A stretch of 64,000 nt of DNA from the NCBI GenBank assembly GCA_947493695.1, contig CANLSF010000001.1, positions 1,054,001-1,118,000 of the forward strand, in the 5' to 3' direction. The notes beneath the pieces are model-generated. The model saw only the letters and a list, made by a program, of their open reading frames with translations. It was not told where the DNA came from and made no database searches. Origin of the DNA: an uncultured Kiloniellaceae bacterium (lineage in GTDB: Bacteria; Pseudomonadota; Alphaproteobacteria; Kiloniellales; Kiloniellaceae). This document shows positions 12,664-43,744 of this stretch, one piece after another (positions within the stretch are counted from its first letter, which is position 1; every line of letters starts with the position of its first letter). A program made the translations under genes and the position numbers.

Positions 12664-14340
12664 ATGTTGGAAAGCAAACTCGATATAGGGCCAGATCAAG
12701 CCATCGGACCGGACCCTGAGGCTGAGTCCGCCCTGCGCAGGCAGTGGCAGTGGAGCCTCGGTGCGATCTGCGTCGTATGGGCTGGCCTGATCCTGTTGTT
12801 TCTGGAAACCGGGCAATCCATGGTGGATACCTGGTTGTCCTCGACCCTGTTCGGACACTGCTTTCTGATCCCGCCGGTGTCGGCCTATCTGATATGGATC
12901 CGGCGTAAACGCCTTTCGGGTCTGGCGCCCAGAGTTGCAAAGCTTGGCTTTCCGATGCTGGTGGTTCTTGCCTTCGGCGGGCTGGTTGGCGCCGTATCCG
13001 GCACACAGGCGGTGCAGCAGCTCGCTTTCGTGAGCATGCTGGTTGTCTCGGTCATTACCATCCTGGGCTGGCGGATCGCCTGGCGGATAGCTTTTCCCCT
13101 CTTCTTTCTGTTTTTCACGATCCCCTTCGGCGAATTTGCGATTGCGCCACTGCAGGACGTGACCGCGGTTTTTGTCGTCTACATGCTTCAGCTGGTCGGG
13201 ATTCCGGTCTATCTGGACGGCCTCTTCATCCATATTCCATCTGGCAGCTTCGAAGTTGCGGAAGCCTGCGCCGGTGTTCGTTTTCTGATCAGCACGATTG
13301 CGCTTGGCTTCATCGGTGCGAACCAGATGTATCAGAGCACAAAGCGCCGTCTGGCCTTCATCGCCTTGTCCTTCATCATTCCGATCATTGCCAATGGATT
13401 TCGCGCCTTCGGCATCGTGATGCTTGCGCATTTGAGCGATTTCACGATAGCGGTTGGCGCCGATCACCTGACCTACGGCTTTATCTTCCTCAGCTTTGTG
13501 ACGATTCTTTTGCTCGCAATCGGTTTTTCTTTCCGCGAAGCAATGCCTTCCGAACGGCGCCGGGCCGGTGCTGAGAGAATGATTGAGCTGACCAACGGCC
13601 GGGTCATCCTGCCGGTTCTCGCCTCGGTCGTAATCCTGGCGATAGCCGCCAGCGCCGATGCCGGACGCCGTCTGACCGAATATCAGGTCGCGGAAGATAC
13701 CACGATCCCACTGAGGTCCATTGCGGTCTCCGCCCCCTGGGAAGAGGTCAATGTTGCCACGCCAAATTGGAACCCCAGCTTTGTCGGCGCCGATTCAGAG
13801 CTCTACAGCAGCTATCGACGCGACGACCAGCAGGTCGATGTATACCTGGCCTTCTACGCTTCCCAGCGACAGGACGCCGAAGTGGTCAACTCGAGCAACC
13901 GCTTCGAAGATGGTGTTTTCTGGGACCGGGCCGGCGGTGGAACCTATCAGGCGACAATCGACGGTGAAGCGCGAAAGGTGAATTACGTGCGTATGCTCGC
14001 CCATCGCAGAGGGCGTGTCGTATGGTATTGGTACTGGGTCGACGGTCGTTTCACAGCGAACCCCTATATTGCCAAGCTGTGGCAGGTTAAGGCGCGTTTG
14101 TTCGGGGGCGTGCGCTCCGCGGCTGCAATCGCGGTTGCGACGGATTACACTGATGCGCCTGTAGATGCGCACGACCTCTTGCGCGATTTCACCACGCAGA
14201 TGGAATCGGTCAGCGCCATGCTGCAGCAGGCCGAAGAGGAACTGCTGCAGGAAGAGCAGGCCATCAGCGAGAAGACTTCGGCTGGCCAACAGACTGCGGA
14301 TAGTCGCGCAGAAGAGCTTAATCGGGATGGAGATCAATAA
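12664..14340 (+). CDS. xrtA: Exosortase A with C-terminal EpsI domain
   Basis: Eight-TM exosortase core with [16 protein letters not shown] (Cys), [16 protein letters not shown] (Arg) and GADHLTYG (His) motifs; C-terminal EpsI-like soluble part. Confidence 0.93.
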
Positions 14341-24138: not shown

Positions 24139-25557
24139 TTAGAAACTGAACTGAACGCCGAACAGTATCCGATCATTGTCGTCGAACTGGCCGAACACGC
24201 CATCGGATGTACCGAAGAAGATATCCGCGCCGGCCCAGACTTTGATGTTGTCGTCGACATGATAGGTGACCTTGGGGCGAACCAGGCCGTCGCCGCTGTT
24301 GATCGACTGCAGCCAAATCACCTCGGCGACCAGGTCTTCGTCCAGGAAGCTCCGGCGGACCAGCAGACTGGTGGTCGCTTCAAACTGATCCCGGACCAGA
24401 CCATTGATGTCATTGGTCAGATAATCGCCGAAAACCTGAGCGCTGATGAGCGTGTCATCAAGCCCGCTCCAATCAAGTCCGATTACTGTGGAGAGATTGT
24501 CGCTTTCGTCGACGCCATCATCGTCTGCAAGATCATCGGTCAGGAAGTAGCGATCGAAGGAATAGCCGACTTCGCCGCGTACGACGAAATCGCCAAATGA
24601 GTTACTGAAGGTGCCGCCCAGCAAGTGCGTACGTTCATATTCCGGTGTAATGGTTACGACCGAGCCGTTTACCTGTCGACGGAGCACCGGATTGTCGTCG
24701 TAGTGATAGAGGTAGTTCAGGCTGACGTCCCAGCTATCGACCATACCGAGCACGCGGAGACCGGCATCGGAGTCTGCGAGAACACTGTCAGGGCGATCCG
24801 GCTCCTGCTGCACGACCGTAAAGCCGGGGATGGCCTCCGGCACGAACCTTGGTGCCGTCAGCGCGTAGAGGGCGTCGGCTTCCGGCAGGTCGTTGTAGGT
24901 CTGGTCCGGAATCCAGAGGAACTCGGCCATAAAGTCGTCAACCGGAACCTCTGCGGCAAAGGTCCAGAGAGGAATGCGTGAATCCTCAAAGTCGTCGAGA
25001 ATGAATTCCCTGAAATCCTGAGGATTAACAACGTCGAGAACCTTCAGGCCGTCAGACTGTCCCCAGACGATCTGCTGTTTCCCAATCCGAAAGTGCGCAA
25101 AATCCGTGGGCGCATCCACATAAAACTCGCGCAGCTCGAAATCAACGTCGTCGTTCAACAGCCAGCGCCGCGAGATGGTGGCGGTGCTGTCCTGGCTCGG
25201 ACTGCCTGGCTCCAGGCGGTCTCGGGTGTCCCAGCGGGCCCGTCCGATAGCTGTCAGGCTGAAGCCATCTGGAAGTTCGATCTCCAGCTCCGGCTGAATG
25301 GTCGTTTCGATCTTCTGACCGTTGCCGTCATTTAGATCAAGTGCGGACTCGTGGCGCAGGGTTGCCGTGAACAACACGGCCTCGTCGAGTGTATCGGCGA
25401 TGTAACCGCCCAGGCCGTCATCCTCCGCAAGTACAGGGGTCGTGGCCGAGGCAAGCGCGAGAAAGGCGGCCGTGCCCCAGCTCGCTGAGCTCAGCAGAGC
25501 GGTTCGGAAAAATTCCGCAGACCGCTGTGACGTCAGGTGGCGACGAGGCGTGATCAT
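24139..25557 (-). CDS. Outer-membrane beta-barrel protein, DUF1302-like
   Basis: Signal peptide (ALASATTPVLAED), alternating beta pattern, C-terminal aromatic RILFGVQFSF. Confidence 0.6.
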   Translation of the reverse strand: MITPRRHLTSQRSAEFFRTALLSSASWGTAAFLALASATTPVLAEDDGLGGYIADTLDEAVLFTATLRHESALDLNDGNGQKIETTIQPELEIELPDGFSLTAIGRARWDTRDRLEPGSPSQDSTATISRRWLLNDDVDFELREFYVDAPTDFAHFRIGKQQIVWGQSDGLKVLDVVNPQDFREFILDDFEDSRIPLWTFAAEVPVDDFMAEFLWIPDQTYNDLPEADALYALTAPRFVPEAIPGFTVVQQEPDRPDSVLADSDAGLRVLGMVDSWDVSLNYLYHYDDNPVLRRQVNGSVVTITPEYERTHLLGGTFSNSFGDFVVRGEVGYSFDRYFLTDDLADDDGVDESDNLSTVIGLDWSGLDDTLISAQVFGDYLTNDINGLVRDQFEATTSLLVRRSFLDEDLVAEVIWLQSINSGDGLVRPKVTYHVDDNIKVWAGADIFFGTSDGVFGQFDDNDRILFGVQFSF

Positions 25558-25570
25558 CGTTTCAAGCCCC

Positions 25571-26479
25571 TCATAATCCGCGCTTGAGTGCACTGCGGGT
25601 GAAGAGGTCGTCGCTCAGTTCGGCAAGGTAATCGACGTCACTCATGATGAAGGTCGTTTTATGGCCGGTCTTGTGGTTTTCGGCCTCCAGAAGATGAGAG
25701 GTCCAGATGCCCTGCACCTGACGGATGTCCCGGGTGTAAATGGTCTTGAGTTTCTTGCCCTGGAGATCCCAGATTTCGGATTTCAGCACCATCCAGATCT
25801 CGGCATCCACGCAGCTCAGCGTGCGGCTGTATCCCAACTGTTCAGCGATTTCTTCGTTGGCCGGAATACCTTCCATGATGTAGCAGGCCCGACCGTCCAC
25901 CTCACCCATACCCAGGGTCGTGCGGTTATAGTCGCTGCGCGATACTTTGGTGTCCTGGCGGATATCGTCGTAGGTGAAGTCGGTGCCCATGAAGTAGTCG
26001 CCACGGTCCGAACCGGAAATGCGGCGCACGCGGCGCAGTGCGGGAAGATACAGCCACTGGGCGTCTTCCTCGGCGTCTTCCAGGTAGTCGAAGGTCAGGA
26101 ACGCCGTATCCCTCACGTTCCTTGGCTTCTCGAAGAAGATTGCGATGCGTTTCTCGGTCTCGAAATACTTGCGGAACGACCGGGTTTTGCGGGTTCGCTT
26201 TTTACCGCGCTTGTCGAGAAGTTCCATGATCATGCTGCGGGCAACGGAATCACCGTCGTTGCGCGCGTTGATCCGCGCTGCGATTTCGTCTCCGCTCGGC
26301 AGCACCTGGTCACTTGCCGCAGTGGTACCGGACGCTGAGGGCTGCTGCGCAACAGGGGCCTGCAGGCGGGCGTTGTTCGGCTCAGCCGGTGTTGTGGCCC
26401 AGGCCGGTATCACAAGGCCGCCGGTCAGGAGCGCAGTGGCGAGAAATCCGGTGATCGGGCGGCGGGTGAGCGTTTTCAT
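25571..26479 (-). CDS. Outer membrane lipoprotein-sorting (LolA-like) protein
   Basis: RSMIMELLDKRGKKRTRKTRSFRKYFETEKRIAIFFEKPRNVRDTAFLTFDY...DAQWLYLPALRRVRRISGSDRGDYFMGTDFTYDD. Confidence 0.82.
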   Translation of the reverse strand: MKTLTRRPITGFLATALLTGGLVIPAWATTPAEPNNARLQAPVAQQPSASGTTAASDQVLPSGDEIAARINARNDGDSVARSMIMELLDKRGKKRTRKTRSFRKYFETEKRIAIFFEKPRNVRDTAFLTFDYLEDAEEDAQWLYLPALRRVRRISGSDRGDYFMGTDFTYDDIRQDTKVSRSDYNRTTLGMGEVDGRACYIMEGIPANEEIAEQLGYSRTLSCVDAEIWMVLKSEIWDLQGKKLKTIYTRDIRQVQGIWTSHLLEAENHKTGHKTTFIMSDVDYLAELSDDLFTRSALKRGL

Positions 26480-26497
26480 CTTAAAGCGTTCCTTTTC

Positions 26498-28948
26498 TCA
26501 AGCTCGATCCGGCACGTCGCTGATACCCAACCGTTCCCAGCGAACGGAGATGTCGCGTGATGCCTGAGCAATCCGGAATTGTTCAGTTAGAAAGCTTGGG
26601 GGCAGCAGCTTCACCAGCGCAGGCAGGACGGTCATGCTGGCGATGAAGCTGGCCGACACGGCCACGGCTACCAGGCTGCCGAAACGGATCAGACCGGGAA
26701 CCTGGCTCGAGATCAGCACCCCGAAGCCGAAAAACACGGTCAGAAAATTGAACAGCAGGGCGCGGCCTGTGGTTGGAAACAGGTCCTCAATGGCTTCGTC
26801 CAGACTCTTCGCTCGATCGCCGGCAAGCAGGATCAGGCGATCAAGGGCGTGCACCGCGAAATCGACGCCGATGCCGATCGCGATGGCTGCCGACATGGAG
26901 GTTCCGATGGCAAGCCGGATGCCGACCGCACCCATCAGCGCGTAGACGAGGAAAACTGAAATCGCGACCGGCAGAAGGGTCAGTGTGCCGGCAATGGTCG
27001 AACGGAATGTCAGGGACGACATGACCCAAACGGCGATCAATGAAATCAGGACGCTGACCAGATGTCCGCTCAGCAGCTGGTTCATCCAGTTGTAGTGAAC
27101 CGTGACATGCCCGGAGAGGCTCGCCGTCATGTCGGCGCTGTTGAAGTTGGTGTCTATGTAGTCTTCCAGGGCCGCAATGACCTTGGCTTCGTTACTGTAG
27201 CGCCCGTTATTCATGGTGACGCGCAGATTGGCCAGACGGTAGTCATAGTCGACTTCTTCCTGGAAGTCGGTGGGGTCACCGCTCATGGAATAGAGCAGGA
27301 AGTACTGGGCGACCTGGTCGGCGGTCTCGGGCAGTACGTAGGCGTCGGCTTCATTGTCGAAGAGGGCCTGATTCATCTGCTTGAGATAGTCGACGATCGA
27401 GACGGTCGAGCGGACCGAGGGCAGAGTCTCGATGTAACGCTGCAGGGCTTCGATACGGCGCAGGCGCTCCGGCTCGAAGAGGGCTTCCGCTTCCTGGGTT
27501 TCGATCACGACGTCCAGGGTCGTGGTACCGTTCATCAGATCATTGATGACCCGGTCGGCAACGGCAATGGGTTCGTCAATCTGGAAGTTGTCGATCGGCG
27601 CTTCGTCGGCCCGCAACTGGGACAATCCGATCAGACCAGCTGCGATCACGAGGCCGCCGAGGGTCAATACAGCCTTCGGGTTTTCTGCGACACTGCGTCC
27701 TATGCGCCGACCGAAGAGCGCGCCCCGGCTCTCAGCTGTTTCTTGTACATCGCCCTGCACCTTTCCTGCGCGCCGAATAGCACGAAGCGCGGGCGACATG
27801 CGGGGCTTCAGGAGGGTCAGGCCCGCGGGAACGGCCACCAGAGAGAGGATCATTGCTGTTGCAATGCCCAGGGTGGCAAAGAGACCGAAGTCCTTCATCG
27901 GCGGCATCGAAGAAGACAGATAGATTCCGGTGAAACCCGCAATGGTCGTCAGCGACGTGATGGTGACCGGGCGCCACATGGCCATCATGGTGCGGATGGC
28001 AAGTTCCCGCGCCGGTGCTTTTGGCCGTGCACTCAACTCGTCGTAATACTGGCCGAGAATATGGATTGAATCGGCGACGGCGATCCCGATCAGGACCACC
28101 GGCAGGGCATTTGTGATCGTATAGATCGGTTTTCCCGCCGCGGCCATGGCCCCCATGGCAACGCCCAGCGTTCCGCCTACGACCAGCAGCGGCAAAATCA
28201 CGCCGCGTGGGTTCCGGTAGCAGAGAAAGAGAATGAAAACGATGATGACTGCCGCCAGGGGGGTGAGGCGTTGGGCATCGGTATCGACATACTTGCCGAG
28301 GTATCCCATGACACCGCCCTGGCCGGCCACATGAATTTCCTCGCCGGCCTGCCGTGGCGCCGCATCCACCAGTTCACGCAGCAGGCGGTAAGCTTCCTGC
28401 GATTGCTCTTCGTCCAGCAACTCCGCTGCGATCAGTGTCGCTTTGCCGTTCTCGCCGATGAGATTGCCGTTGTAGAGCGGGAAGCCGGCGACGGCATCGC
28501 GGATGGCGTCGGCCTCTTCCTGCGTCTCGGGTGGGTCGATGAAAAAGGGTTCAACCTGAAGGCCTTCGGGGACGCCGATGATGTTCTTTTCGCTGGCCAG
28601 GCTGGTGATCCGGTCCGCGTCAATGCCCGGCAGTTCGGCAATTTGGTCCGACAACCATTTGATAAGTTGAAGACTCTCAGGGTTGAAAACGCCGTGAGGT
28701 CCATTGTTGACCACTGCGACCACCAGAGGGTCTTTCAGGCCAAAGGTCTCCTTGACCTTATCCCGATAAACAACAGCCGGATGTTCGGCCGGCATGAAGG
28801 CATCCGCGCTGGTGTCTTTGGTCAGGCGCGGCAAAAAGCTTGCCGTGGCGATCGTTATGATGGCCACGATCACAAGAACGGTTTTTGGAAAGGCCGTGAC
28901 GGCTTCGAAGAACCGCCAGGTCCGTGATTTCCCCATCTCGATGATCAT
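26498..28948 (-). CDS. RND/MMPL family transporter
   Basis: About 12 TMs, two SSD-like repeats (GIAVADSIHILGQYYDE; GIGVDFAVHALDRL), two periplasmic loops. Confidence 0.88.
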   Translation of the reverse strand: MIIEMGKSRTWRFFEAVTAFPKTVLVIVAIITIATASFLPRLTKDTSADAFMPAEHPAVVYRDKVKETFGLKDPLVVAVVNNGPHGVFNPESLQLIKWLSDQIAELPGIDADRITSLASEKNIIGVPEGLQVEPFFIDPPETQEEADAIRDAVAGFPLYNGNLIGENGKATLIAAELLDEEQSQEAYRLLRELVDAAPRQAGEEIHVAGQGGVMGYLGKYVDTDAQRLTPLAAVIIVFILFLCYRNPRGVILPLLVVGGTLGVAMGAMAAAGKPIYTITNALPVVLIGIAVADSIHILGQYYDELSARPKAPARELAIRTMMAMWRPVTITSLTTIAGFTGIYLSSSMPPMKDFGLFATLGIATAMILSLVAVPAGLTLLKPRMSPALRAIRRAGKVQGDVQETAESRGALFGRRIGRSVAENPKAVLTLGGLVIAAGLIGLSQLRADEAPIDNFQIDEPIAVADRVINDLMNGTTTLDVVIETQEAEALFEPERLRRIEALQRYIETLPSVRSTVSIVDYLKQMNQALFDNEADAYVLPETADQVAQYFLLYSMSGDPTDFQEEVDYDYRLANLRVTMNNGRYSNEAKVIAALEDYIDTNFNSADMTASLSGHVTVHYNWMNQLLSGHLVSVLISLIAVWVMSSLTFRSTIAGTLTLLPVAISVFLVYALMGAVGIRLAIGTSMSAAIAIGIGVDFAVHALDRLILLAGDRAKSLDEAIEDLFPTTGRALLFNFLTVFFGFGVLISSQVPGLIRFGSLVAVAVSASFIASMTVLPALVKLLPPSFLTEQFRIAQASRDISVRWERLGISDVPDRA

Positions 28949-29099: not shown

Positions 29100-30455
<1,356 letters not shown>

Positions 30456-30519
30456 AAAAAAGATCTCTACAGAACTGTTGCAACAGGGTCGTTTTTATTG
30501 GTGGCACTGGATCGTCGTA

Positions 30520-32634
30520 TCAGTTGGAAACTGGTACTGTAGGTTCGACCAAGAGTGAAGTGTCAAACTCTGCTTCTTTCGGACCGGTTCCCTCCACAAT
30601 GGGAAGGAGGATACGCATTGTTGTTCCTGCCCCCGGGTTACTGATCACTTCAAGGTCTCCTCCAAGCTCCCTCGCATATTCACGGCACTGATACGCGCCA
30701 ATGCCCATGCCGCGGGATTTCGTCGAGCGGAACGGCGTAAAGAGTTCGTTCATGACAAAACTCGTATCCATCCCCGTGCCGTTGTCTGCAACCTCGATCA
30801 GGGCTGTTTCGCCCTTTCGGTTCAGGCTGATCTTGACCCAGCCGTCGGAATCAACTGCATCGATCGCATTCTGCAAAAGATGATTGATAATTGCGCTCAA
30901 ACGTTCCTGGTCGGCGGCGACGGTCACATCGATACCGCTCCAATCTATCGATAAATCTATGGAATCGCTTTGTTTAATTCGCGTTAATTTCGCCAATAAA
31001 GGCCCAATTTGGACAATGTTGCTGGCATTGGCCGTGGGTTGATCATTGCCAAGGCGGTCCATCAGTCGCCGCATTTTCGAAACAGCGTCATTGAGTGTGT
31101 CTGTCATGTCCTCACGAAACTGCTCGTTGTGACCGTGCCGTTCCATGTTCTTGGACAATAACTCCAATTGGCTTACCAGGTTCTTGATGTCGTGTATGAC
31201 GAAGGCGAAGCGCCGATTGAATTTGGCGAATTCCCGCGATTCAGCCAGTGCGACTGCGTTCTTCTGCTCCGCCAGATAGCTGGCGGCCTGTCGCCCGGTT
31301 GTTTTGAGCAGATCGTAGTCTTCCCAGCCCAGCGGCCGGACTGCGCGGGGCCGCGCGAGCAACAGGAAACCGATGAAGGCGGCATGATGGGTCAGAGGAA
31401 CGATAATCCAGGCGTTCTTAAGCTGGCTGATTGAATCGGGTAGGGTTAGATTTCCGTATTTTGACGGATTCTCCTGTACCTCCACGACATCGATCAACCA
31501 CTGGCGCTCTTCCAGAAACCGGGCCATCGACGTTGCTTCATCGGTGCGCAAGCTTGAAACAGCCATGTTCCAGGCTGCATAAACGACGTAGCGGTCATCC
31601 TGGCGCAGCCACAAGGCGCCGCCGGGACTTTCAACGATATCGGCGATGGCCTGGATGACACGTACGCCCAGTTCCTCGGTTTCCTGGGATTCGGACACTG
31701 TACGTGTGAAGCGCAGCCATTCTTCACGGTAGTCATAGCGGTAAGCGTAAAAGTGCTTACCAATCAGAACCTTGATGTGAGCCCTGACGGTTCCGGAGAT
31801 CAGCAGTACGGCCAGAACGATAATCGCGCCGAAGAAGAAGGTGGCCTGAATCACTGTCCCCCAGGCACCGTCGAACTGCTGAAGGAAGAAGCCGACACCG
31901 GCCATGCCGATGATGTAGACGCCGCTTGTGGTCAGCGTAGTGGAGTAAAAGGCGATTTTGCGGGAAACCGTGATATTGGTCCGCCACATTTCGTTGCGGC
32001 GCGAGGAGATTGCGAGCAGTGGAACGACCATCGCCTGCACGCCACCGCGGGCCTCCTGGAATCCTGAGTTAACCTCACCGAACAAAAGGGCGTCCGCATA
32101 GAAAAACAGATCATAGGCAAAGAGTCCGCCTATGCCGATGCAGAGAAACTTTATCTTCCAGCGTTCATCCTCGCTGGTGTTGCGAAACAGGGTTTCGATC
32201 AGCATCAGGCCGGCAATTACCAGCATAAGCCGCAGAAGGCAGCGAACGGTAAAGCCCGCTTCCCACGTCAGTGGCTGATAGAGTTCGTAACCGAGCAGCA
32301 GGATTGAGAAGGCAATGAAGATGAATACGATATAGCGGCCAAGGCCCTGATTCGTATCAGATGACCCGCCTTGCAGCACGCTCCATAGAAACGCCAGCCA
32401 GCATACAGAACGAAGGTTCTCCATGGCTTCTATCAGCGAGGCCAGGTGAACGCCGCTCCAGTTCTGATAGGCGGCAAGCGACAGCCAGAAGAAGGTTACG
32501 AAACAGGCCAGGAACAATAGACTGCCCTGCAGTCGTCGTTCGAAGTTGATGGCCAGCAGCAGTGTAAGGAGGAGGAAGGCGCCAGCGCCGACCGAGTAGC
32601 TGATGGTCCCAATAAGAGCAGTCTCTACGATCAT
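30520..32634 (-). CDS. prsK: XrtA/PEP-CTERM system histidine kinase PrsK
   Basis: N-terminal multi-TM region, GAF-like domain, FAFVIHDIKNLVSQLELLSKN H-box, ATPase GMGIGAYQCREYARELGGDLEVIS. Confidence 0.92.
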   Translation of the reverse strand: MIVETALIGTISYSVGAGAFLLLTLLLAINFERRLQGSLLFLACFVTFFWLSLAAYQNWSGVHLASLIEAMENLRSVCWLAFLWSVLQGGSSDTNQGLGRYIVFIFIAFSILLLGYELYQPLTWEAGFTVRCLLRLMLVIAGLMLIETLFRNTSEDERWKIKFLCIGIGGLFAYDLFFYADALLFGEVNSGFQEARGGVQAMVVPLLAISSRRNEMWRTNITVSRKIAFYSTTLTTSGVYIIGMAGVGFFLQQFDGAWGTVIQATFFFGAIIVLAVLLISGTVRAHIKVLIGKHFYAYRYDYREEWLRFTRTVSESQETEELGVRVIQAIADIVESPGGALWLRQDDRYVVYAAWNMAVSSLRTDEATSMARFLEERQWLIDVVEVQENPSKYGNLTLPDSISQLKNAWIIVPLTHHAAFIGFLLLARPRAVRPLGWEDYDLLKTTGRQAASYLAEQKNAVALAESREFAKFNRRFAFVIHDIKNLVSQLELLSKNMERHGHNEQFREDMTDTLNDAVSKMRRLMDRLGNDQPTANASNIVQIGPLLAKLTRIKQSDSIDLSIDWSGIDVTVAADQERLSAIINHLLQNAIDAVDSDGWVKISLNRKGETALIEVADNGTGMDTSFVMNELFTPFRSTKSRGMGIGAYQCREYARELGGDLEVISNPGAGTTMRILLPIVEGTGPKEAEFDTSLLVEPTVPVSN

Positions 32635-32930: not shown

Positions 32931-34577
32931 ATGACTGAATCCGACTCTTCTTCGCTCGATCTTGCCATTGCTTCCTGGCGTCAGGATCTTGGTGCGGATT
33001 CGGTACTGACGGGTGCAGACAGTGATGCTTACGGGCGGAATTGTATCGGCGTTTCACGGGATATTTCTGCTGTGGTTCGGCCGCGGAACGAGGCAGAGGT
33101 GGTCGCTGTTGTTAAAGCCTCGCGAGACAATAAGGTCCCGCTTTATCCTATAAGTACCGGGAATAACTGGGGTTACGGCAGCGCTGCGCCTGCCGCAAAT
33201 GGCAGTGCGATTGTTGATTTAAGCGGCATGAGTCGAATTCTAGATGTGGATCCGTTACTGGGTGTGGTCACCCTGGAGCCGGGCGTGACGCAGCAGCAAC
33301 TCCGCGACTATCTTGATGAGAAGGATCTGCCATTCCTCGTGCCTGTCACCGGAGCCGGCCCAACCTGCAGCCTTCTGGGCAACGCCCTGGAGCGCGGTTA
33401 CGGCATAACGCCGCACAGCGACCATTTTGCGGCTGTTATGTCGCTTAGGGCGGTTTTGCCAAGCGGTGAAATCTATCAATCGGCCATCGCGGAGGCGGGC
33501 GGTAAGGACGTCGATCATGCCTATAAATGGGGGGTCGGTCCTTATCTCGACGGGATTTTTACGCAATCCAGTCTCGGTATCGTGACTCAGATGACGATCG
33601 CGCTGGCCAGGGTTCCCGAGCGGGTCGAGCTCTTCATTTTCGGTTTGCAGAGCGAAGATGACCTGGAGGCCGGTGTGGATGCGGTGCGTGCGTTGCGCCA
33701 GAGCCTGGGGGATGGCCTGGGCGCCATCAACATTCTTAACCGGCAACGTGTGCTTTCGATGATCGAGCCCTATCCCGCGGCGGATGTGGAGAAAGGTGAA
33801 GTCATTCCGGACAGCGTGGTCGAGGAAATGGCCAAACGCCGCCGGCTGCCCCACTGGTTCGGGGTGGGCGCTCTCTACGGAACCAAGGAGACCGTTCCCG
33901 CCATGCGGCGCCGGGTAAAGCGGGTTCTGGGGCCCCGCAGCAAAGGATTGCTGTTTTTCTCCAAGTCGAGGCTCGGCCTGATTCAGGCACTGATGTCGTT
34001 CGTTCCCGGCACTCTGGGCAAGGTGATGCAGGAACGGCTGGGAACTCTGGACGAGACCCTCGATATTTTATTGGGACGGCCTCGTGAAACCGCATTGAAG
34101 CTTGCATACTGGAAATCCGGCGGCGTACCTGAATCCCTGAAGGCTGACGATCTGCTCAATCCGGCACGGGATGGTTGTGGTATTATGTGGTATGCGCCCT
34201 TGGTGCCGATGACGGCTCAATCGGTGCGCAGCTATGTCGATATGATCAAAGAAATTTGCCCGAAATACGGCATTAACCCGTTGATTACTTTAACAACAAT
34301 ATCTGAACGCTGTTTCGACAGCACAATACCGATACTCTTCGACCTGCCCAGTGAAACAGAGCGGGCACAAGCCTGTTACCGAGCCCTGTTCGAGGAGGGG
34401 CAACGGCGCGGATTTCTGCCCTATCGGATGAACCTGAACTCGATGGGACTTTACGTTGACCGGGAGGACTCGGTTTACTGGCAGACCGTGGAGAAGGTTA
34501 AACATGCACTCGACCCCGGCCAGCTGATTTCACCAGGGCGATATCATCGCAGGTCTCCGGCAGAAGATAACAAATAG
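32931..34577 (+). CDS. FAD-binding oxidoreductase, VAO/PCMH type (4-cresol dehydrogenase-like)
   Basis: PRNEAEVVAVVKASRDNKVPLYPISTGNNWGYGSAAPAANGSAIVDLSGM...GVVTLEPGVTQQQL. Confidence 0.85.
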   Translation: MTESDSSSLDLAIASWRQDLGADSVLTGADSDAYGRNCIGVSRDISAVVRPRNEAEVVAVVKASRDNKVPLYPISTGNNWGYGSAAPAANGSAIVDLSGMSRILDVDPLLGVVTLEPGVTQQQLRDYLDEKDLPFLVPVTGAGPTCSLLGNALERGYGITPHSDHFAAVMSLRAVLPSGEIYQSAIAEAGGKDVDHAYKWGVGPYLDGIFTQSSLGIVTQMTIALARVPERVELFIFGLQSEDDLEAGVDAVRALRQSLGDGLGAINILNRQRVLSMIEPYPAADVEKGEVIPDSVVEEMAKRRRLPHWFGVGALYGTKETVPAMRRRVKRVLGPRSKGLLFFSKSRLGLIQALMSFVPGTLGKVMQERLGTLDETLDILLGRPRETALKLAYWKSGGVPESLKADDLLNPARDGCGIMWYAPLVPMTAQSVRSYVDMIKEICPKYGINPLITLTTISERCFDSTIPILFDLPSETERAQACYRALFEEGQRRGFLPYRMNLNSMGLYVDREDSVYWQTVEKVKHALDPGQLISPGRYHRRSPAEDNK

Positions 34578-38476: not shown

Positions 38477-39943
38477 TTAAAAATTCTCGTCCCACACGAA
38501 GCCTTTACCGGGTTTGAAAGTCATTGCCGTAAAGGACTGGTCGACGTTGCGGAACTTCCTGCGCAGGGTCTTGATCGTATTCAGCACGACCATTTGGCGG
38601 CCTTTGGCAGACGATTCCTGTTTTTCCTGATGCGGTTCGATGAGCTGGTAAAGTTCATTGAAGGACGCTGTCTCGCCGGGTTGAGAGGATAACAACTCAA
38701 CGATCGATGTTTCCGGCAGGGTTAGAGCCACAGGCTGTCCCTGCCAATTGACAACGCCATCGACGCTTGTCAGATCTGTGCGGTCGGGAACAGGTGCTTC
38801 ATCCGGGCGCGGAGTGCGGATATCTCGTTGTGATTGTTCATCTTGGCCTGCAACCACCATTTGCAGTGCCGGTGCCGGAGGTAGTCCGGCTGCAACACGG
38901 TCCGGGTACCACTTATTCCCGGTCTGAGGCGAACCGGCAACGATGACATTGCCGACCATCTCGATGGGAATCAGTGAGTGTAAAACACGGCCTGGCCGGT
39001 CCATGATCAGTGTGTTTCCGGTAATAACGATATTGCCGACAGGGTGTTGTTGCAGGTCTTTTTCCAGGGCGATGCCGATGAGGTCCGGGTTTGCGCTGTG
39101 TGGGCCCTTTTGGATGACGTTGTTTACGATTCTGATCTCACCGCCGTTGGGCAGATCGATCGTTCTGCTGTCTCTGCCGAGTTCCGAGCCGATTACACTG
39201 TCTTCGATTGTGGTTTTACGTGCGCGGCTTTTGATTTCATGGCCTTCGTCCTGAGAGGACAAAAGGCGGCTTCGCCTGACGATCAGATGATCGCCACCGC
39301 TCATGTAGATCGCATGCGCCCGTCCAATTGCGCCGAGCCGCTCAAACCTGCTGTCTTCAACGATCACTTCTCCGACTTCGCCGCCGGACAGAAGGCCCTG
39401 CTGAGAATCGTGAAAATAGACGTTACGGAGGATCAGATTCCGGCCGCGCAAGCGGATGCAGGCGCCGTTATAGGCGGGAACACTGATGCCGGAGCATTCA
39501 AGCCCTTCAATGACCGTATCGTTGCCCAGTATGACCAGTGCCGCCTTGCCATCCACGGCAGTATCGCGGAGCGCCGCGCCTTCTGCTGCGGTGATGGTGA
39601 CGCTATTGGCGGTAAGGATCGCGCCTTCTCTATATTCACCAGCCTCGATGTGCAGCCGATCACCGTCGCTGAGCGATGTGATTGCTTCGTTGAAGGAATG
39701 AAACTGGCAGTTTTCATGACCGCTTTCCGCGGGACAGAGCGTCAAGCTATTGGATGCGGCCGCAGGCGAAGAGAGACCAAGGAGGGCGAGGAGGCCAAAG
39801 ACGAGAGGGCTGCCACACTTCAAGGCCTTGCCGCCTGCTGAGAGTATGGACAGCTTATGTCCTTCCGGGCGCTGCAAGATTCTTGAAGCTGTAGATGTCT
39901 GATCCATCGATTCTACTGTGTGTTGCCGCACTGCTCTCGACAT
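38477..39943 (-). CDS. Right-handed parallel beta-helix protein with C-terminal OmpR/PhoB-like winged-helix module
   Basis: Hydrophobic N-terminus (LVFGLLALLGLSSPAAAS), beta-helix repeats (VIEGLECSGISV...NLILRNVYFHDSQQGLL...VIVEDSRFERLG), C-term VALTLPETSIVELLSSQPGETASFNELYQLI...VVLNTIKTLRRKFRNVDQSFTAMTFKPGKGFVW. Confidence 0.75.
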   Translation of the reverse strand: MSRAVRQHTVESMDQTSTASRILQRPEGHKLSILSAGGKALKCGSPLVFGLLALLGLSSPAAASNSLTLCPAESGHENCQFHSFNEAITSLSDGDRLHIEAGEYREGAILTANSVTITAAEGAALRDTAVDGKAALVILGNDTVIEGLECSGISVPAYNGACIRLRGRNLILRNVYFHDSQQGLLSGGEVGEVIVEDSRFERLGAIGRAHAIYMSGGDHLIVRRSRLLSSQDEGHEIKSRARKTTIEDSVIGSELGRDSRTIDLPNGGEIRIVNNVIQKGPHSANPDLIGIALEKDLQQHPVGNIVITGNTLIMDRPGRVLHSLIPIEMVGNVIVAGSPQTGNKWYPDRVAAGLPPAPALQMVVAGQDEQSQRDIRTPRPDEAPVPDRTDLTSVDGVVNWQGQPVALTLPETSIVELLSSQPGETASFNELYQLIEPHQEKQESSAKGRQMVVLNTIKTLRRKFRNVDQSFTAMTFKPGKGFVWDENF

Positions 39944-40190
39944 GGGAGGGCTTTCCTCCGAAAGCTATGACAGATCTATGTTAAAGGGAATCTCTCGGGA
40001 TGCCCTGTGGTTCTGGTGAAACCATTATGAAGTGGTTCGCTGCTGCATCGTCACTTTGCGCTATGGCAAAGTGAATTCAATCAATTCAGGCTGTTAACGC
40101 ATGACGATGATCATACGTCAAGGTTCCTTGCCTTGGGCGGGCGGATCCGACACAGACTTGTCTTCCATAAAGCCATAGGGATCGCATAGA

Positions 40191-41197: not shown

Positions 41198-41214
41198 AGC
41201 AATTTGTGTGCCAA
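41198..41214 (-). promoter_or_regulatory. Sigma-54 -24/-12 promoter of PEP-CTERM gene 1
   Basis: Minus strand TTGGCACACAAATTGCT; GG and GC separated by exactly 10 nt. Confidence 0.85.
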
Positions 41215-42450: not shown

Positions 42451-42467
42451 AGCAATCCGCGTGCCAA
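42451..42467 (-). promoter_or_regulatory. Sigma-54 -24/-12 promoter of PEP-CTERM gene 2
   Basis: Minus strand TTGGCACGCGGATTGCT. Confidence 0.87.
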
Positions 42468-43727: not shown

Positions 43728-43744
43728 AGCAAATTGCGTGCCAA
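43728..43744 (-). promoter_or_regulatory. Sigma-54 -24/-12 promoter of PEP-CTERM gene 3
   Basis: Minus strand TTGGCACGCAATTTGCT. Confidence 0.87.

What the first reader, a model, noticed from the sequence alone, without database searches (positions are those of the whole stretch)
38477..39943. Secreted-looking beta-helix protein with an OmpR/PhoB-like winged-helix C-terminus
One uninterrupted ORF carries a hydrophobic export-like N-terminus (LVFGLLALLGLSSPAAAS), a parallel beta-helix core and a proline-rich linker. It ends in VALTLPETSIVELLSSQPGETASFNELYQLI...VVLNTIKTLRRKFRNVDQSFTAMTFKPGKGFVW, which matches the pattern of response-regulator DNA-binding domains (LTxxE..LLxxL..xPG..xs...L; xxxLRRKF; GxGFxW). 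A DNA-binding fold on an exported carbohydrate-type beta-helix is topologically paradoxical. It could be a membrane-tethered regulator, a cytoplasmic beta-helix sensor, or a winged helix reused outside the cell, in an XrtA/EPS locus.
Basis: partly seen in the sequence, partly recalled or inferred. Interest (0 to 1): 0.75.

Follow-up and report, generated by a model that had tools for sequence, protein, structure and literature searches.

The report
Exported beta-helix protein with winged-helix tail
Four related marine bacteria carry, in their slime-making gene cluster, an exported sugar-polymer-type enzyme with a domain on its end that descends from a gene-regulating DNA-binding domain; that domain has lost the residues its relatives use to read DNA and has probably been put to a new use outside the cytoplasm.

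Summary
Observation confirmed. ORF 38477-39943 (-), 488 aa, has a signal peptide (invariant A61-x-A63), a right-handed beta-helix (64-362), a variable linker and a C-terminal OmpR/PhoB-type winged helix (393-488; AF2 pLDDT 84; Foldseek to BaeR, ToxR, CadC). The tail aligns without gaps over about 99 aa to DNA-binding domains of 20 relatives (28-32% identity where measured). The same fusion, in the same XrtA/exopolysaccharide position, occurs in all four held genomes of the genus (Denitrobaculum/Pelagibius), with both domains under purifying selection; it was not found elsewhere in the order or in class and phylum samples. Beta-helix relatives end where the linker begins. Residues invariant in the relatives at three base-reading positions are lost (N452V/I, R454L, R459T) and net charge falls from about +4 to +1. 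There is no receiver domain, second membrane segment or conserved internal start. Best reading: an exported, RbmB/PL6-like polysaccharide-modifying beta-helix carrying a captured winged helix that now serves as an extracytoplasmic adaptor, not a transcription factor. Its ligand is unknown; nonspecific binding of extracellular DNA is not excluded. Export and activity are inferred, not shown.

The parts
38477..39943 (-). Whole ORF, 488 aa: exported beta-helix / winged-helix fusion
   Evidence: orthologues with identical architecture in three other congeneric genomes
39955..39959 (-). Shine-Dalgarno-like GGAGG, 11 nt before the ATG; GGAGG also present in orthologue L062
   Evidence: sequence; upstream alignment
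39755..39943 (-). Signal peptide, residues 1-63 (hydrophobic core LVFGLLALLGLS at 47-58, AxA at 61-63)
   Evidence: fast-evolving (pN/pS 0.57-0.86) except the invariant AxA
38858..39754 (-). Right-handed parallel beta-helix, residues 64-362, with Cys pairs C70/C79 and C150/C162 and conserved polar residues R164, H210, Y213, H235, K238, D263, N285, E294
   Evidence: PF13229; AF2; Foldseek RbmB/PL6; alignment of 31 family members
38768..38857 (-). Variable, low-confidence (probably flexible) linker, residues 363-392
   Evidence: 30-83% identity among orthologues; pLDDT below 50 at residues 338-391
38480..38767 (-). OmpR/PhoB-type winged-helix domain, residues 393-488
38543..38608 (-). Former recognition helix, residues 446-467; N452, R454 and R459 of the regulators replaced by V/I, L and T
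12664..14340 (+). XrtA exosortase (context)
   Evidence: TIGR03109, 304 bits vs cutoff 208
29100..32634 (-). PrsR (29100-30455) and PrsK (30520-32634) (context)
   Evidence: TIGR02915 and TIGR02916
34866..37694 (+). PrsT TPR protein (context; conserved neighbour of the fusion gene)
   Evidence: TIGR02917; synteny

Best explanation
The gene encodes an exported, extracytoplasmic beta-helix protein of an exopolysaccharide-associated family, probably a polysaccharide lyase, epimerase or similar enzyme of the RbmB/PL6 fold class, acting on the polymer made by the surrounding XrtA/EPS locus. In the ancestor of this genus a winged-helix domain was appended to its C-terminus through a flexible linker. 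That domain descends from the DNA-binding domain of an OmpR-family response regulator of a type found across alphaproteobacteria. It kept its fold and stays under purifying selection, but lost the residues its relatives conserve at base-reading positions and most of its net positive charge. It therefore most likely works as an exported protein- or matrix-binding adaptor that positions the enzyme, not as a transcription factor. Shown by computation: fusion, fold, homology, signal peptide features, synteny, selection, replacement of base-reading residues. Inferred: actual export and cleavage, enzymatic activity, substrate, and the adaptor's ligand.
For: Signal peptide: AxA invariant although the region is only 21-39% identical; positive N-flank; no other TM. 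Two Cys pairs conserved in the four orthologues and the relative L065. Fold. Gapless homology to 20 relatives' DNA-binding domains. The fully kept columns include the core signature W400, L407, T408, E411, G423, Y432, F464, F471, G479, G481, W484, while N452, R454 and R459 are lost in all four fusions. These map to V213, E215 and Y220 of M. tuberculosis PhoP (HMMER alignment of the closest paralogue), which contact bases in the PhoP-DNA complex (PMC4832192). Wing residues at phosphate-contact positions change too (N476F, Y482F/I). Mean net charge is +0.75 vs +4.2. Purifying selection: winged helix pN/pS 0.14 and beta-helix 0.19 in the least saturated pair L062-L063. Syntenic in four genomes inside an XrtA/EPS locus. 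Beta-helix relatives occur in XrtA loci of other lineages. R164, H210, Y213, K238 and N285 are invariant in 31 relatives and intact here.
Against: No export, cleavage or enzyme data exist. K458, R461 and K463, at or near phosphate contacts, are retained and helix 3 is still +4 to +7, so some nucleic-acid affinity is possible. Loss at DNA-contact positions is not enriched over the general turnover of regulator-conserved columns (about half of all 42 are lost). The full model rests on a shallow alignment (mean pLDDT 66) and its Foldseek matches to lyases are modest (TM about 0.3-0.4). RbmB/PL6 catalytic geometry was not verified.
Confidence: 0.6

Rival explanations
1. The exported winged helix still binds DNA without sequence specificity and anchors the beta-helix enzyme to extracellular DNA in the biofilm matrix.
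For: Helix 3 keeps +4 to +7 net charge, K458, R461 and K463 are invariant in the fusions, and the wing has K/R at 477 where relatives have Y. The gene sits in an EPS locus.
Against: Net domain charge is only about +1 versus +4 in relatives; wing positions N476 and Y482 and base-reading N452, R454 and R459 are replaced, two of the latter by hydrophobic residues.
Confidence: 0.17
2. It is a cytoplasmic or membrane-tethered transcription regulator whose beta-helix senses a sugar polymer.
For: The domain is a true OmpR-type winged helix by fold and homology and lies in an EPS locus with its own two-component regulators.
Against: Conserved signal peptide with AxA, single N-terminal hydrophobic segment with N-in charge bias, so the tail faces out even if uncleaved; conserved Cys pairs; replaced base-reading residues; no conserved internal start with a ribosome-binding site that could give a cytoplasmic isoform.
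Confidence: 0.06
3. The tail is an evolutionary leftover of a chance gene fusion, without function.
For: Restricted to one genus; beta-helix relatives do without it.
Against: Kept without stops in four species with pN/pS of 0.14-0.34, close to the beta-helix and far below the signal peptide; the fold is intact.
Confidence: 0.07
4. The tail folds back on or caps the beta-helix, or serves as an export/recognition signal, and binds no external ligand.
For: Hydrophobic residues now on the former DNA-facing side (V/I452, L454, F476) could form a packing surface.
Against: A variable 30-residue linker with low pLDDT separates the two; relatives are complete without a tail. Inter-domain error was not reported by the tool.
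Confidence: 0.1

Closest known systems
OmpR/PhoB-family DNA-binding domain (Pfam PF00486), nearest the DNA-binding domain of an alphaproteobacterial response regulator next to a histidine kinase (L045; below every NCBIfam cutoff, nearest profile TIGR03787/PdsR)
   Same: Winged-helix fold, gapless alignment over about 99 aa, core signature residues kept
   Different: No receiver domain, exported, base-reading residues replaced, near-neutral charge
RbmB of Vibrio cholerae (VPS lyase) and PL6 alginate lyases
   Same: Best Foldseek matches of the full model; right-handed beta-helix; associated with an EPS system, as RbmB is with VPS
   Different: Only 12-16% identity in the structural alignment; catalytic residues and substrate untested; no winged-helix tail in the matched structures
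Stand-alone right-handed beta-helix proteins of XrtA/PEP-CTERM loci (e.g. L075/L086, L076/L087, L008/L089)
   Same: 40-46% identity over the beta-helix, same invariant polar residues, same kind of locus
   Different: They end about where the linker begins here
ToxR/CadC membrane-bound regulators
   Same: Same winged-helix superfamily; an extracytoplasmic domain and a winged helix in one chain
   Different: There the winged helix is N-terminal, cytoplasmic and followed by a TM helix (own knowledge); here it is C-terminal to a signal peptide and beta-helix

Membership tests
OmpR/PhoB winged-helix domain (fold and descent) | Winged-helix fold of the family | tested here: met
   AF2 pLDDT 84; Foldseek to BaeR, ToxR, NsrR, AdeR, CadC
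OmpR/PhoB winged-helix domain (fold and descent) | Pfam PF00486 score over the curated cutoff | tested here: not met
   25.2 bits on the isolated tail vs 26.2, though E=1.7e-5
OmpR/PhoB winged-helix domain (fold and descent) | Alignable to genuine response-regulator DNA-binding domains | tested here: met
   Gapless over about 99 aa with 20 relatives
OmpR-family transcription regulator | Receiver domain or other cytoplasmic input domain | tested here: not met
   No REC profile; residues 64-362 are beta-helix
OmpR-family transcription regulator | Cytoplasmic location of the DNA-binding domain | tested here: not met
   Conserved signal peptide, no second TM; computational only
OmpR-family transcription regulator | Conserved base-reading residues of the recognition helix | tested here: not met
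   N452, R454, R459 -> V/I, L, T in all four, mapped through PhoP
OmpR-family transcription regulator | Sequence-specific DNA binding | not testable with these tools
   Needs EMSA or ChIP
RbmB/PL6-like polysaccharide lyase | Right-handed parallel beta-helix | tested here: met
   PF13229 over cutoff; AF2 and Foldseek
RbmB/PL6-like polysaccharide lyase | Sequence-level family membership | tested here: inconclusive
   Profile search of the PDB gave only a weak match to the PL6 lyase AlyGC (E=0.12) and none to RbmB
RbmB/PL6-like polysaccharide lyase | Catalytic Lys/Arg and metal site | tested here: inconclusive
   K238 is invariant and R260 conserved in near relatives only; correspondence to PL6 residues not established
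XrtA (PEP-CTERM) substrate | C-terminal PEP-CTERM anchor | tested here: not met
   The protein ends GFVWDENF with no C-terminal hydrophobic segment
ToxR/CadC membrane-tethered regulator | N-terminal cytoplasmic winged helix followed by TM helix | tested here: not met
   Winged helix is C-terminal; only one hydrophobic segment, N-terminal

The most novel reading that the evidence does not exclude
A response-regulator DNA-binding domain was captured by an exported exopolysaccharide-acting protein and turned into an extracytoplasmic adaptor (for protein, glycan or extracellular DNA): a winged helix working outside the cytoplasm.
Probability: 0.7. Interest if true: 0.6.

Novelty: new variant of a known kind. 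Interest (0 to 1): 0.5.

Why it matters
OmpR-type winged helices are known as cytoplasmic DNA readers. A clear descendant that is exported, fold-conserved, under selection and stripped of the residues its relatives carry at base-reading positions would be a clean natural case of a transcription-factor domain reused outside the cytoplasm. It also flags an EPS-locus beta-helix family (probable polymer-modifying enzymes of XrtA systems), found in several proteobacterial lineages, that could be tested biochemically.

Tried and rejected
A search for other exported copies of the tail found none: its own genome has 19 PF00486 matches, and the profile of the tail finds only this protein plus two ordinary-length regulators in each congener. 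In 241 class genomes the best-scoring hits that were read were response regulators, apart from one receiver-less 132-aa protein in G228. Plasmid records: the best hit (Azospirillum) is an ordinary response regulator. Phage records: no match. A sigma-54 promoter like those of the neighbouring PEP-CTERM genes was not found ahead of this gene. A cytoplasmic isoform from an internal start: no start codon with a good Shine-Dalgarno conserved in all four. Literature searches gave no described exported OmpR-type winged helix; the library is open-access only. The AlyGC paper was not held, so PL6 catalytic residues could not be checked. An enrichment of losses at DNA-contact positions versus other regulator-conserved positions is not there; the argument rests on which residues were lost, not on enrichment.

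Full report
What is there. ORF 38477-39943 on the minus strand encodes 488 aa with a GGAGG 11 nt upstream of the ATG. Residues 1-63 look like a signal peptide, 64-362 a right-handed beta-helix (PF13229 over cutoff), 363-392 a variable linker, and 393-488 a winged helix (PF00486 E=1.7e-5, one bit under its cutoff). AlphaFold2 gives the tail alone pLDDT 84 and pTM 0.77 with the secondary-structure order of the OmpR family, and Foldseek matches it to BaeR, ToxR, NsrR, AdeR and CadC DNA-binding domains. In the full model (mean pLDDT 66, five sequences) the beta-helix and tail are predicted while the linker and signal peptide are not.

More than chance. The tail aligns without a gap over about 99 columns to the DNA-binding domains of 20 proteins from the class, 19 response regulators and one receiver-less protein; measured identity for the first six is 28-32%. 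The closest relative in the host genome is a REC + winged-helix regulator next to a sensor kinase (L045); it is far below the cutoff of every NCBIfam regulator model, nearest being TIGR03787. The fusion is present, with the same domain order and 71-76% overall identity, in all three other held genomes of the genus, named by contig records as Denitrobaculum tricleocarpae, Pelagibius sp. Alg239-R121 and an uncultured Kiloniellaceae bacterium. Gene order around it is conserved: prsK, an oxidase-like ORF, prsT, a YdcF-like ORF, the fusion, PEP-CTERM genes, a mannose-1-phosphate guanylyltransferase.

Where else. With the full-length query no fusion was seen in the other 59 genomes of the order or in 397 other phylum genomes; with the tail profile, the hits read among 241 class genomes were regulators or a receiver-less regulator-type domain. 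Beta-helix relatives without the tail are common. Several lie in XrtA loci: L086 beside exosortase-A-associated hydrolase, ligase and decarboxylase genes, L087 in a locus with XrtA and its amidotransferase, L089 near PrsT. In the nearer relatives the protein ends just after an AGLPP-like motif, and the linker starts at the same place here, so the tail was appended to a complete protein. A second paralogue in each congener, kelch-like plus beta-helix, lies in the same EPS region about 46 kb away in the host.

Selection. In the least saturated pair (L062-L063) pN/pS is 0.14 for the tail, 0.19 for the beta-helix and 0.65 for the signal peptide; across all pairs the tail is 0.14-0.34. Synonymous sites are near saturation in the other pairs, so those ratios are rough.

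Where it goes. The four signal regions are only 21-39% identical, but A61 and A63 of the AxA motif are invariant, a hydrophobic core precedes it in all four, the N-flank is positive, and no other segment reaches transmembrane hydrophobicity. C70/C79 and C150/C162 are conserved also in the relative L065, which fits an oxidising compartment. With a single N-terminal segment in this orientation, the tail would be outside the cytoplasm whether or not the signal is cleaved. No internal start with a conserved ribosome-binding site would make a cytoplasmic tail. No signal-peptide predictor was available.

What happened to the DNA-binding face. Of 42 columns conserved in at least 85% of the 20 relatives, the four fusions fully keep a little under half. 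Lost ones include R450, N452, R454 and R459 in the recognition helix and N476, Y482 and R483 in the wing. The HMMER alignment of L045 to M. tuberculosis PhoP places positions 452, 454 and 459 on V213, E215 and Y220, which contact bases in the PhoP-DNA crystal structure, while 461 and 462 fall on the phosphate-contacting R222 and R223 (PMC4832192). By the shared GxG motif, 476 and 482 fall on T235 and Y241, phosphate contacts (same paper; placement by inspection). So residues at base-reading positions changed, some phosphate-contact charge stayed, and mean net charge fell from +4.2 to +0.75. The losses are not enriched at contact positions compared with other conserved columns, so this shows loss of the ancestral specificity rather than proof of no DNA binding.

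Likely function. The full model is most like RbmB, the VPS lyase of Vibrio cholerae, and PL6 alginate lyases, although by sequence the relation is weak. RbmB is an experimentally established lyase whose predicted fold was likened to PL6 by its authors (PMC11637428). Five residues are invariant in 31 beta-helix relatives (R164, H210, Y213, K238, N285) and H235, D263 and E294 nearly so; all are intact in the fusion, consistent with an active groove. The surrounding locus has XrtA, its EPS export, chain-length, kinase, ATPase, deacetylase, FemAB and glycosyltransferase genes. I therefore favour an EPS-modifying exported protein with a repurposed winged-helix adaptor. The ligand of the adaptor is unknown.

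Limits. Everything is computational. Export, cleavage, activity and substrate are inferred. The genus sample is four genomes. Searches outside the order were samples, so rare fusions elsewhere could be missed.

Noticed in passing
window 41199-41213, 42452-42466, 43729-43743 (minus strand): The only three exact TGGCAC-N5-TTGC (sigma-54 -24/-12) matches in the window lie just ahead of the three PEP-CTERM genes, suggesting PrsR/sigma-54 control and later true starts for the ORFs listed at 42467 and 43744.
   Followed up: partly
L055:6375-8855 (G000 C1 about 1046374-1048854, upstream of the window): Paralogue with a kelch-like N-terminal part fused to the same beta-helix, syntenic in all four congeners.
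   Followed up: partly
L069:5118-5516 (genome G228): Stand-alone 132-aa receiver-less winged-helix protein of the same regulator type that keeps the DNA-face residues; a useful cytoplasmic contrast.
   Followed up: partly
L086, L087, L089: Tail-less relatives of the beta-helix sit inside XrtA/exosortase loci of other lineages, so this may be a recurrent, unnamed EPS-locus protein family.
   Followed up: partly
window 24139-28948: DUF1302 protein, LolA-like protein and MMPL/RND transporter cassette next to prsR.
   Followed up: no
window 32931-34577: A large oxidase-like ORF sits between prsK and prsT in all four congeners.
   Followed up: no
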